From Lichenostomus cassidix (taxonomy: Eukaryota > Chordata > Aves > Passeriformes > Meliphagidae), in contig VLJF02000864.1 of assembly GCA_008360975.2 (NCBI GenBank), positions 1 to 64,000 on the forward strand: a DNA stretch of 64,000 nt. The letters run 5' to 3'. The position numbers and the translations under genes are program-made. A model generated the notes under the pieces. That model was not told where the DNA came from. It saw nothing but the letters and a program-made list of their open reading frames with translations, and did no database searches. Every line of letters begins with the position of its first letter. The stretch's first letter is position 1. Shown one piece after another: positions 18,079 to 22,079 of the stretch.

Positions 18079-18323
18079 TCACTGCTGCTCCTTCTCGCTT
18101 TTCTCCTTATTCATTTTCTTCATTTTCATCCTCCTGTTCTGGAACCAGATTTTCACCTGCCGCTCGCTCAGGTTCAGCCCTCGCGCCACTTCGTACCTCC
18201 TGTCCCGCGTCAGGTACATGTTGAACAGGAACTCCTTCTCCAGCTCCAGCGTCTGGTACTTGGTGTACGGACAGCGCTTCTTGCGGGTGGAACGGGCGTG
18301 GATCCAGTTCGCCACGGGGTTGC
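18079..18323 (-). CDS. HOXC9: HOXC9 coding exon 2 (homeodomain)
   Basis: This exon encodes the DNA-binding half of HOXC9. The acceptor is a pyrimidine tract ending cccccag, and the first base is 18323. The junction codon is GGC, giving ...LEAGNPVANWIHARST.... The ANW motif (residues 201-203) is the degenerate hexapeptide with which Hox9 proteins contact PBX. The homeodomain spans residues 209-268 and keeps W48, F49, N51 and R53 (KIWFQNRRMKMKKMN). The tail KEKSEKEQQ resembles the HOXC9 end KEKTDKEQS. The stop is TGA at 18081-18079, so the whole protein is 277 residues against 260 for human HOXC9. Homeodomain position 37 is Gly (GGG at 18180-18178), where Hox9 paralogues carry Val, Leu or Ile. 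HOXC9 is preferred over HOXD9, which ends MSKEKCPKGD. Confidence 0.95.
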
Positions 18324-18886
18324 CTGGGGGAAGAAAATATTTTAGGGTTTATTGCAAGATTTGGAAATTTTTCCAAAATTTTTCACAATTTTTTCACAAT
18401 TTTTTGTCATTTTTCCCTACTTTTCCACCATTTTTCCCATTTTTTCACCATTTTTTGTCATTTTTTGCCATTTTCCCCCTATTTTTTTGCCATTTTTTCC
18501 CCATTGATTCAATTTTCTTCCCCATTTTTCCCCATTTTTTCCCCATTTCCCCCCATTTTTTTGCATTTTTTTGCCATTTTTTACCATTTTTCGCCCATTT
18601 TTCCCCATTTTTTGTACTCTTTTCACCTTTTTTTGCCATTTTTCACGATTTTCCCCCATTTTCTTCACCATTTTTGCCTTTTTTTGCCATTTCCCCCCAT
18701 TTTTTCACCATTTTTCAGCATTTTTTCACCACTATTTGCCATTTTTTCGCCATTTTTTTCAGCATTTTTTCAGCATTTTTTGCCATTTTTTGCCCATTTT
18801 TTTCACAATTTTTTGCCATCGTTTTCCCATTTTTCCCCATTTTTCACAATTTTTTAATCATTTTTTGGCCATTTTTTGCCCCTTTT

Positions 18887-18998
18887 TCACGAATACATTT
18901 GGTATTTCGTGTAGGGACAGCGCTTCTTGCGGGTGGAGCGGGCGTGGATCCAGTTCGCCACGGGGTTGCCTGGGGGAGGAAATGGTTTTAGAGGGTTA
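18887..18998 (-). pseudogene. Partial HOXC9 exon 2 copy 1 (acceptor plus 23 exact residues, then stop)
   Basis: This is a second copy of the exon-2 start, 646 bp upstream of the true exon in the transcript. The acceptor tcctcccccag is intact and the first exonic base is 18969. In frame with exon 1 it reads NPVANWIHARSTRKKR and on through CPYTKYQ, identical to HOXC9 residues 198-220. It then reads MYS and TGA at 18889-18887. Five bases differ from the true exon over those 23 codons and all five are synonymous. A branch-like CTAAAA lies about 20 bases before the AG. It lacks the homeodomain helices. It could be a decoy acceptor, an alternative terminal exon or a dead duplicate. Confidence 0.9.
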
Positions 18999-19202
18999 TT
19001 TTGGAGGTTTTGGAATTTTTCCCAATTTTTTTCCGATTTTTTCACCATTTTTTGCGATTTTTTTCACAATTTTTTGCCATTTTTTTCACAATTTTTGGCC
19101 ATTATTTGCCATTTGTCCCCATTTTTTGCCATTTTTCCCCATTTTCTTCACCATTTTTTCACAATTTTCCCCCATTTTTCCCCATTTTCCCCCATTCTTA
19201 AT

Positions 19203-19290
19203 GTAGGGACAGCGCTTCTTGCGCGTGGAACGAGCGTGGATCCAGTTCGCCACGGGGTTGCCTGGGGGAGGAAATGATTTTAGAGGGTTT
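19203..19290 (-). pseudogene. Partial HOXC9 exon 2 copy 2
   Basis: The acceptor tcctcccccag is intact and the first exonic base is 19261. Translation in the exon-1 frame gives NPVANWIHARSTRKKRCPY, then IKNGGKWGK as the copy runs into simple repeat. Differences from the true exon within the shared codons are third-position and silent until a Thr to Ile change at the break. The copy lies 292 bp from copy 1. Confidence 0.88.
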
Positions 19291-19508
19291 TCAGAATTTT
19301 TCGCAATTTTTTCCGATTTTTTTCACAATTTTTTCACCATTTTTTTTGTTTTTTCCACAATTTTTCACCATTTTTTACCACTTTTTGCCTTTTTCTGCCA
19401 TTTTTTTCACAATTTTTGGCCATTTTTCACAATTTTTTGCCATTTTTTCCCCATTTTTCCCCATTTTTCCCCCATTTTTTCATCATTTTTCCCCATTTTC
19501 CCCCATTC

Positions 19509-19590
19509 TTAGTGTAGGGACAGCGCTTCTTGCACGTGGATCCAGTTTGCTACAGGGTTGCCTGGGGGAAGAGAGGGGTTTAGAGGGTTA
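19509..19590 (-). pseudogene. Partial HOXC9 exon 2 copy 3 (11-bp deletion, frameshift)
   Basis: The acceptor tcttcccccag is intact and the first exonic base is 19561. It reads NPVANWIH and then loses 11 bp relative to the true exon. This shifts the frame to VQEALSLH and TAA at 19511-19509. It lies 300 bp from copy 2 and shares the GTA valine codon with copies 4 and 5. Confidence 0.88.
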
Positions 19591-19802
19591 TTTTGGAGGT
19601 TTTGGAATTTTTCCCAATTTTTTTCCGATTTTTTCACAATTTTTTGCGATTTTTTTCAGCATTTTTTCACAATTTTTTGCCATTTTTTTGCCATTTTTTC
19701 CCCTTTTTTCACCATTTTTCCCCCATTTTTCATCATTTTTTCACAATTTTCCCCCATTTTTCCCCATTTTCCCCTATTTTTCCCCATTTTCCCCCATTCT
19801 TA

Positions 19803-19912
19803 GTGTAGGGACAGCGCTTCTTGCGCGTCAAGCGAGCGTGGATCCAGTTCGCTACGGGGTTGCCTGGGGGAAGAGATTGTTTTAGGGTTTATTGCAAGTT
19901 TTGGAAATTTTT
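19803..19912 (-). pseudogene. Partial HOXC9 exon 2 copy 4
   Basis: The acceptor tcttcccccag is intact and the first exonic base is 19863. It reads NPVANWIHARLTRKKRCPYTK before entering simple repeat. The only amino-acid difference in that span is Ser to Leu before the homeodomain; the other codon differences are silent. The intronic flank TTGCAATAAACCC matches that of the true exon over about 40 bp, so the duplication unit included intron. Confidence 0.88.
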
Positions 19913-20353
19913 CACATTTTTTTCCGATTTTTTTCACCATTTTTTGCGATTTTTTCACAATTTTTTCACAATTTTTCCCCATTTTTTCACGATTTTTTGC
20001 GATTTTTTTCACAATTTTTTCACCATTTTTTCACAATTTTTTCACGATTTTTTCACCTTTTTTGCGATTTTTTTCACAATTTTTGCCATTTTTCCCCATT
20101 TTTTCCCCATTTCTTGCCATTTTTTCCCCCATTTTTTCCCCATTTTTTGCCATTTTTTGCCCCATTTTTTCACCTTTTTTTCACCTTTTTTTCATCATTT
20201 TCCACCATTTTTTCCCATTTTTTGGCCTTTTTTTATCATTTTTTTCACCATTTTTCCCCATTTTTTCCCCATTTTTTTCACAATTTTCCCCCCATTTTTT
20301 CACAATTTTTCCCCCATTTTTTCCCATTTTTTGGCCATCTTTTTGCCCCTTTT

Positions 20354-20480
20354 TCACGAATACGTTTGGTATTTCATGTACAGACAGCGCTTCTTGCGCG
20401 TCGAACGGGCGTGGATCCAGTTTGCTACAGGGTTCCCTGGGGGAAGAAATGATTTTAGAGGGTTTTTGCAAGGTTTGGAA
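20354..20480 (-). pseudogene. Partial HOXC9 exon 2 copy 5 (ends in the same stop as copy 1)
   Basis: The acceptor tcttcccccag is intact and the first exonic base is 20436. The junction codon becomes GGG, still Gly. It reads NPVANWIHARSTRKKRC, then LYMKYQTYS and TGA at 20356-20354. The distal half (KYQ.YS stop, then the CACGAATAC block on the plus strand) matches copy 1, so these two share a duplication history separate from copies 2-4. Confidence 0.88.
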
Positions 20481-21087
20481 ATTTTTCCAAATTTTTTCAC
20501 AATTTTTTGTCATTTTTTTCAGCATTTTTTGCCATTATTTGCCTGTTTTTTCCAAAATTTTTGGCCATTTTTCCACCATTTTTTGTCATTTTTCCCCATT
20601 TTCTTCACCATTTTTGCCTTTTTTTTGCCTTTTTTTGCCATTTTTCTGCCATTTTTTGCCCATTTTCCCCCATTTTTCCCCCATTTTTTCCCCATTTTTT
20701 CCCCATTTTTCCCCCATTTTTTCAGCTTTTATTCAATTTTTTTCCCATTTTTTCATCATTTTTTCACCATTTTCCACCATTTTTTGCCATTTTTTCACCA
20801 TTTTTTGCCATTTTTTCCCCCATTTTTCCCCATTTTTTCCCCATTTTTTCAGCTTTTATTCAATTTTTTTGCTATTTTTTCACAATTTTTTGCCATTGTT
20901 TTGCCATTTTTCCTCATTTTGCCCCCAGTTTTTGCCATTTTTTTTACCATTTTCCCATTTTTTCCCATTTTTTCTCCATTTTTTCCCATTTTTTCCCCAT
21001 TTTTCCCCATTTTTTCCCTTTTTTCCCCATTTTTTCCCCATTTTTCCCTCATTTTCTCCCCATTTTCCCACATCTTTTTCTCCACCA

Positions 21088-21122
21088 GGTCGCCTGTGGA
21101 AAGAGAGGGGTTTAGAGGGTCA
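21088..21122 (-). repeat. Acceptor-only remnant of HOXC9 exon 2 (copy 6)
   Basis: The minus strand shows CCCTCTAAACCCC, a pyrimidine-rich run and cacag before 21093. This matches the intron side of copies 1-5. Beyond the junction only a degenerate GACCTGGTG remains before simple repeat. Confidence 0.7.
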
Positions 21123-21800
21123 TTTACAAGTTTTTGGAATTTTTTCACAATTTTTGGCCATTTTTTTCACAATTTTTTCACCATTTTTTGCCATTTTTTT
21201 CATCATTTTTTCACCATTTTTTGCCATTTTTCACCATTTCCCCTCCATTTATTCAATTTTTCCAATTTTTCCCCATTTTTTTCATTTTTTCCCCATTTTT
21301 TCCCCATTTTTCCCCATTTTTTCCCTTTTTTCCCCCAATTTTTCCCCCATTTATTGAATTCTTTTCCCATTTTTTTGCCATTTTTTCCACCATTTTTCCT
21401 CCATTAATTCAATTTTTCCACCATTTTTTCCCATTTTTTACCATTTTTCCCCCATTTCTTTCACAGTTTTCCCATTTTTTTCAACATTTATTCAATTTTT
21501 TCCCCATTTTTCCCCCATTTTTTGCCATTTTTTCACCATTTTTTTCACCATTTTTCACAATTTTTTCACAATTTTTTGCCATTTTTTCACCACTTTTTCC
21601 CCATTTTCCCACGTTTTCTCCATTTTTTCCCCATTATTTCCATATTTTCCCCATTATTTCCATATTTTTTCCCACGTTTTTCCCCATTTTCCCCATTTTT
21701 TTCGGTTTTTTCCCATTATTTTCATATTTTCCCCACTATTTCCCCATTTTCCCCCATTATTTTCATACTTTTCCCCATTTTCCCCCATTTTTTTCACCAC

Positions 21801-21835
21801 TGGGTTGCCTCGGGAAGGAAATTATTTTAGAGGCT
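21801..21835 (-). repeat. Acceptor-only remnant of HOXC9 exon 2 (copy 7)
   Basis: The minus strand keeps CCTCTAAAATAATTTCC, then cccgag before 21808. After it come GC AAC CCA GTG, which still encode NPV, and then GAAAAAAATGGGG repeat. The sequence matches the other copies around the junction but the homeobox part is lost. Confidence 0.75.
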
Positions 21836-22000
21836 TTTTCCGAATTTTTTCACAATTTTTCCCCAATTTTTTCCCCAATTTTTTCCCCATTTTTTCCCCA
21901 ATTTTTTCCCCAATTTTTTCACAATTTTTCCCCAATTTTTCCCCAATTTTTTCCCATTTTTTCCCCATTATTTTCATATTTTTCCCCCATTTTTTTCTCC

Positions 22001-22050
22001 ACCGGGTTGCCTGGAGAAGCAGAGGGGTTTAGAGGTTTTTCCAAGTTTTG
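22001..22050 (-). repeat. Acceptor-only remnant of HOXC9 exon 2 (copy 8)
   Basis: The minus strand reads CTCTAAACCCCTCTGC, then ttctccag before 22010, then GC AAC CCG GTG (NPV) and repeat. This is the copy met first when the transcript is read from exon 1. Confidence 0.75.
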
Positions 22051-22079
22051 GAGGTTTTTCACAAATTTTACCATTTTTT

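What the first reader, a model, noticed from the sequence alone, without database searches (positions are those of the whole stretch)
18323..22060. Head-to-tail array of HOXC9 exon-2 starts upstream of the true homeobox exon
Seen directly: five minus-strand copies (first exonic bases 18969, 19261, 19561, 19863 and 20436) repeat the end of the intron and the start of exon 2. Three more (21093, 21808, 22010) keep only the acceptor region. Each full copy has a CTAAA branch-like motif, a pyrimidine tract, an AG and codons for GNPVANWIH. In the transcript all of them are met before the real exon. Eight competing 3' splice sites in one HOX intron is not a situation I know to be described. The copies may work as decoy acceptors, alternative last exons, or splicing regulators.
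Basis: seen in the sequence. Interest (0 to 1): 0.92.

Follow-up and report, generated by a model that had tools for sequence, protein, structure and literature searches.

The report
Stuttered HOXC9 exon in songbird
In a HOXC9 gene that probably comes from a songbird, the intron carries eight partial copies of the start of the next exon, each with an acceptor-like splice site; they were likely made by the recently described avian "exon stuttering", and no use of them by the cell has been shown.

Summary
Minus-strand HOXC9 has exon 1 at 33177-32589 and the homeobox exon at 18323-18079. The closest listed HOXC9 proteins are passerine. Best explanation: "exon stuttering", published in 2026 for chicken (PMC12954441), in which an exon edge with its splice site is repeatedly duplicated into a repeat-filled intron. 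The claim that this is undescribed is therefore wrong. By a rough recalled matrix 23 intron sites, the true acceptor included, score at least as well as it; only three are copies. A splicing role is untested.

One feature looks new. Differences between units are almost all synonymous (at least 12 third-, 3 second-, 0 first-position changes). Shared variants are synonymous; copy-private ones are 1 synonymous to 4 nonsynonymous plus a frameshift (Fisher p 0.003-0.011, but 0.08 if one twice-hit site counts as shared). The copies look like free relics of earlier exon states, yet equal-rate neutral simulations fail (0 of 229): the living exon would have to change some 10-40 times faster than its copies. 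That gap is unexplained.

The parts
32589..33177 (-). HOXC9 exon 1, coding part (Hox9_act), followed by GT donor at 32588-32587
18324..32588 (-). HOXC9 intron, 14,265 nt, 88% tandem repeat
18079..18323 (-). True HOXC9 exon 2, coding part with stop (homeodomain)
18899..18991 (-). c1: acceptor + 71 nt of exon start, junction class A, no amino-acid change over 23 codons; frame ends KYQMYS-stop
19197..19283 (-). c2: acceptor + 65 nt of exon start, junction class B
19508..19583 (-). c3: acceptor + 54 nt of exon start with an 11-nt frameshifting deletion, junction class B
19799..19885 (-). c4: acceptor + 65 nt of exon start, junction class B
20363..20458 (-). c5: acceptor + 74 nt of exon start, junction class A, frame ends KYQTYS-stop
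21076..21115 (-). c6: acceptor + about 18 nt of exon start, junction class C
21793..21830 (-). c7: acceptor (GAG) + about 16 nt of exon start, junction class C
21995..22032 (-). c8: acceptor + about 16 nt of exon start, junction class C
28100..29900 (-). Intronic minisatellite with 13 of the 22 other intron sites that score at or above the true acceptor; not shown to derive from the exon
   Evidence: rough recalled matrix

Best explanation
The array is eight partial copies of the HOXC9 intron end and exon-2 start, likely produced by avian "exon stuttering", that is, repeated tandem duplication of a block running from the repeat-filled intron a short way into the exon. Such a duplication is expected to leave the intact exon at the downstream end and to push each truncated copy, with its acceptor, up into the intron; this would explain the one-sided layout without any function. 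Three different exon-to-repeat junctions point to at least three founding duplications; later amplification and exchange are inferred from 5' and 3' halves that group differently. The copies look like unconstrained relics of earlier states of the exon. If a copy were spliced to exon 1, the predicted product would be a HOXC9 of 213-277 residues without the homeodomain helices; the five long copies would keep NPVANWIH and four of them RKKRC. Such use is untested and is, in my judgement, likely low-level noise rather than regulation.
For: Copies, junction classes and mosaic halves. Intron 88% and window 83% tandem repeat, as reported for stuttering introns of chicken. Eight copies over 3.7 kb lie within the published 1-44 copies and 112-23,555 bp; the five long exon pieces (54-74 nt) lie within the published 20-187 bp, the three short ones (16-18 nt) just below it. 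Five of eight copies exceed the published 42.1-bit threshold (my blastn settings were not theirs). Bird origin: of the top 21 of 120 listed protein hits 20 carry bird names (two as hypothetical proteins) and one is unnamed; the best two named hits are Passeriformes. Copy-private changes 1 S: 4 N plus a frameshift against shared or T-only changes all S: Fisher p 0.003-0.011 in four ways of counting. Other long-period arrays in the same window show that block duplication is general here.
Against: Free copies beside a constrained exon should show far more amino-acid-changing positions than are seen: about 25 on average, and 0 of 229 accepted simulations had 4 or fewer at equal rates, so the simple relic model needs an unproven extra ingredient. 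One nonsynonymous site (codon 21) is hit in c2 and c5; counted as one shared variant instead of two private ones, the shared/private contrast falls to p 0.08. The physical order fits a time series only weakly (score 30; 10% of 720 orders as good, 5.8% with T kept last). Chromosome, species and length variation could not be checked. Chicken chr33 is set apart from the ten dot chromosomes (passage), and that chicken HOXC lies on chr33 is recalled.
Confidence: 0.85

Rival explanations
1. The long copies are, or were until recently, working alternative last exons that make homeodomain-less HOXC9, kept by selection on the protein.
For: Pooled differences are strongly synonymous (pS 0.16-0.59, pN 0-0.10 over 15 pairs); frames are open from exon 1 into all eight copies; c1 has no amino-acid change; acceptors intact in all eight. 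A homeodomain-less HOXB9 exists in human cells (PMC7040399 abstract).
Against: Copy-private changes are 1 S: 4 N plus a frameshift in c3; fully constrained copies give 0.2 position-1/2 changes on average, 3 sites (4 events) are seen. Three copies have lost nearly all exon sequence. No RNA was available; polyA signals near the copies were listed but not evaluated.
Confidence: 0.08
2. The copies act as decoy acceptors that slow or tune HOXC9 splicing, with their exon sequence irrelevant.
For: AG and the CTAAA are kept in all eight copies; pyrimidine content 13-16 of 19 against 14 in the true acceptor.
Against: 19 unrelated sites in the same intron score as high or higher than the true acceptor, so the copies would be a minority of decoys; retention of acceptor sequence is also expected if the copies are simply young.
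Confidence: 0.06
3. Assembly artefact: the array is falsely expanded in the assembly.
For: Highly repetitive intron; only one haplotype sequence was available.
Against: The copies differ from each other and have three distinct junctions; the published chicken cases were backed by raw reads for PHF8.
Confidence: 0.03

Closest known systems
Exon stuttering on avian dot chromosomes (Hron et al. 2026, PMC12954441)
   Same: Edge of a coding exon with its adjacent splice site copied repeatedly into the neighbouring tandem-repeat intron; imperfect copies; copy number and span in range; bird gene.
   Different: A HOX gene in a probable passerine; the main text does not mention HOX and the 115-gene list was not seen. 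The word 'synonymous' does not occur in its main text. Length variation and chromosome not testable here.
Homeodomain-less HOX9-type isoforms, e.g. human HOXB9v (PMC7040399, abstract and outline seen)
   Same: Predicted product lacks the homeodomain.
   Different: HOXB9v is an observed transcript from an unaltered gene; here the isoform is only predicted, from duplicated exon starts.
Decoy exons / decoy splice sites (recalled, no call)
   Same: Acceptor-like sites before the real exon.
   Different: No evidence here of spliceosome binding or regulation.

Membership tests
Exon stuttering (Hron et al. [quoted passage not shown]
   8 copies, all in the intron next to exon 2, same strand
Exon stuttering (Hron et al. 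2026) | Copied piece starts at the exon border and carries the splice site | tested here: met
   all 8 begin at the border with AG and the upstream tract
Exon stuttering (Hron et al. 2026) | blastn score above 42.1 bits | tested here: met
   met by 5 of 8 copies (67-128 bits); the 3 short ones were not found by blastn (settings not identical to theirs)
Exon stuttering (Hron et al. 2026) | Intron heavily covered by simple/tandem repeats | tested here: met
   88% of the intron
Exon stuttering (Hron et al. 2026) | Intron length varies between individuals | not testable with these tools
   one sequence only
Exon stuttering (Hron et al. 2026) | Location on an avian dot chromosome (190 of 236 introns) | not testable with these tools
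   own-genome search unreachable; bird origin supported
Functional alternative last exon | Coding sequence of the copies under purifying selection | tested here: inconclusive
   pooled differences look constrained, copy-private ones do not
Functional alternative last exon | Spliced transcripts | not testable with these tools
   no RNA data

The most novel reading that the evidence does not exclude
Stuttering writes a fossil record of an exon and speeds up the exon itself. The relic copies keep earlier codon spellings while the living exon edge has changed its synonymous codons some 10-40 times faster than its relics, either because repair at the stuttering edge is error-prone or because selection favours spellings that break homology with the copies and so protect the exon from being scrambled.
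Probability: 0.18. Interest if true: 0.85.

Novelty: new member of a known kind. Interest (0 to 1): 0.5.

Why it matters
It places exon stuttering inside a HOX gene of a probable songbird, where truncated isoforms, if made, would have developmental meaning. It also shows how a stuttered exon can be used as a record: changes shared between units and changes private to a copy can be told apart, and here they differ in kind. The rate gap found this way would make the unknown mechanism of stuttering testable, by comparing synonymous change in the duplicated first 75 nt with the rest of the exon across related birds.

Tried and rejected
Copies maintained as coding exons: attractive from pooled pN/pS, weakened by the private changes. 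Neutral relics at equal rates: rejected by simulation (no recombination modelled, c3 treated as undeleted). Gene conversion between exon and copies as the cause of the synonymous excess: set aside by argument only, not simulated. Strict time order of copies: only weak. More remnants in the window: next hit E 1.1. Other homeobox exons: tblastn with exon 2 at E up to 1 gave, besides exon 2 and its copies, three weak hits (E 0.002, 0.15, 0.39), which I did not pursue. RNA families: none at gathering score in the window; at a lax threshold 33 matches at 33-64 kb, all below gathering, none mir-196. HOXC9 DNA of other birds for polarising changes: not obtained; viral contigs gave no relative. Acceptor scoring used a rough matrix recalled from general knowledge. 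Literature: searches; no paper holds HOXC9, passerine and intron together, only PMC12954441 holds 'exon stuttering', and a narrow six-term search on recombination and synonymous divergence of tandem duplicates gave 0. PMC9974502 and PMC13192246: passages only.

Full report
What is there. The window holds HOXC9 on the minus strand: exon 1 coding 33177-32589 (Hox9_act; donor GTAAGG) and exon 2 coding 18323-18079 (homeodomain; best solved relatives HOXA9 and HOXC9). The 14,265-nt intron is 88% tandem repeat and the window 83%. A protein search found 3,624 hits and listed 120; of the top 21, 20 carry bird names and one none, at 55-63% identity. The two best are Passeriformes. The organism is therefore probably a songbird.

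The array. c1-c5 keep 54-74 nt of exon, c6-c8 16-18 nt. The exon pieces run into the repeat at three kinds of junction: class A (c1, c5...KYQ(M/T)YS-stop), class B (c2, c3, c4...AAGAATGGGGG), class C (c6-c8). Every copy keeps AG, and a CTAAA that starts 22 nt before the exon. c3 has an 11-nt deletion that shifts the frame. The next profile hit in the window has E 1.1.

Where it comes from. Hron et al. 2026 (PMC12954441; abstract, sections 7 and 9 in full, section 8 part 1 of 2, and passages) describe "exon stuttering": the edge of an exon with its splice site copied through a repeat-filled intron, in 236 introns of 115 chicken genes, 190 of the introns on dot chromosomes. The HOXC9 array meets the four features I could test; the three short copies fall below the published length range and score threshold. 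Length variation and chromosome could not be tested. Tandem duplication of a block that ends inside the exon leaves the complete exon downstream and the truncated copy upstream; this inference would explain why all copies precede the real exon in the transcript.

Codon pattern. Over 22 codons and six units (T, c1-c5; for c3 the codons touched by its deletion left out) there are at least 12 third-position, 3 second-position and 0 first-position changes. With a synonymous expectation of 0.22-0.35 the probability of 12 or more of 15 is 3e-6 to 5e-4 (the computed expectation is 0.22-0.29). Pairwise pS is 0.16-0.59 and pN 0-0.10 over all 15 pairs. Variants shared by two or more units, or on T alone, are synonymous. 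Variants that I count as private to a copy are 1 synonymous (c5 GGG) and 4 nonsynonymous (c4 Ser-Leu, c5 Pro-Leu, c5 Thr-Met, c2 Thr-Ile), plus the c3 frameshift; Fisher p 0.003-0.011 in four ways of counting. The two Thr changes hit the same base in copies of different junction classes; counted as one shared variant, p is 0.08. My reading: shared changes arose in the constrained exon, private ones in free copies. The 5' and 3' halves of the pieces group differently (c1 resembles T in its 5' half and c5 in its 3' half), so units have probably exchanged parts.

The gap. If the copies were free and the exon constrained at one mutation rate, 11-13 third-position changes should come with about 25 others; 0 of 229 accepted simulations had 4 or fewer. 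With the living exon 2, 5, 10, 20 and 40 times faster the fraction is 0% (of 343), 0.2% (of 435), 3.7% (of 431), 17.5% (of 354) and 57% (of 348) (CpG-aware, no recombination). Full constraint on the copies gives 0.2 on average (414 simulations), fewer than the 3 sites seen. Neither simple model fits; a faster living exon, or copies constrained until recently, remain possible. The first 25-35 nt after the exon pieces are nearly identical within classes A and B, which speaks for young copies, though exchange between units could also cause it. I could not obtain HOXC9 DNA from another bird to settle the direction.

Splicing. By a rough recalled matrix the true acceptor scores 3.5; 23 intron sites score at least that: T, three copies (c6, c3, c8), 14 sites at 28.4-30.0 kb and 5 at 24.4-25.2 kb. 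Products of splicing exon 1 to a copy would be 223 (c1, c5), 254 (c2), 213 (c3), 239 (c4), 277 (c6), 247 (c7) and 226 (c8) residues, all without the homeodomain helices; that the NPVANWIH stretch contacts PBX is recalled. A homeodomain-less HOXB9 is known in human cells (PMC7040399, abstract and outline). No RNA was available.

Verdict. Real, and a clear new case of a recently published phenomenon, in a HOX gene. The proposed splicing function is unproven. The codon pattern is the part worth following.

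Noticed in passing
window 28100-29900 (-): Intronic minisatellite with a repeated pyrimidine tract + CAGG; holds 13 of the 22 other intron sites that score at or above the true acceptor by a rough recalled matrix. It resembles the exon-2 acceptor, but the profile match there is not significant (E 1.1).
   Followed up: partly
window 32785-32826 (-): Exact in-frame 21-nt tandem duplication inside coding exon 1; the four relatives checked show a single unit in that stretch.
   Followed up: partly
window 18082-18321 (-): Homeodomain reads EVARGLNLSER; of 97 fetched relatives with this stretch only P0006 (Oenanthe melanoleuca, Muscicapidae) also has the G, and none has the S.
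   Followed up: partly
window 33000-64000: No mir-196 match even at a lax threshold, and no other clear homeobox in the window, although in mammals (recalled) mir-196a-2 and other HOXC genes lie close to HOXC9.
   Followed up: partly
window 18324-22600 (-): AG is strongly depleted on the transcript strand of the array (86 seen, 542 expected from base content), probably a by-product of the TGGGGAAAAA-type repeat, so the copies' AGs stand out.
   Followed up: no
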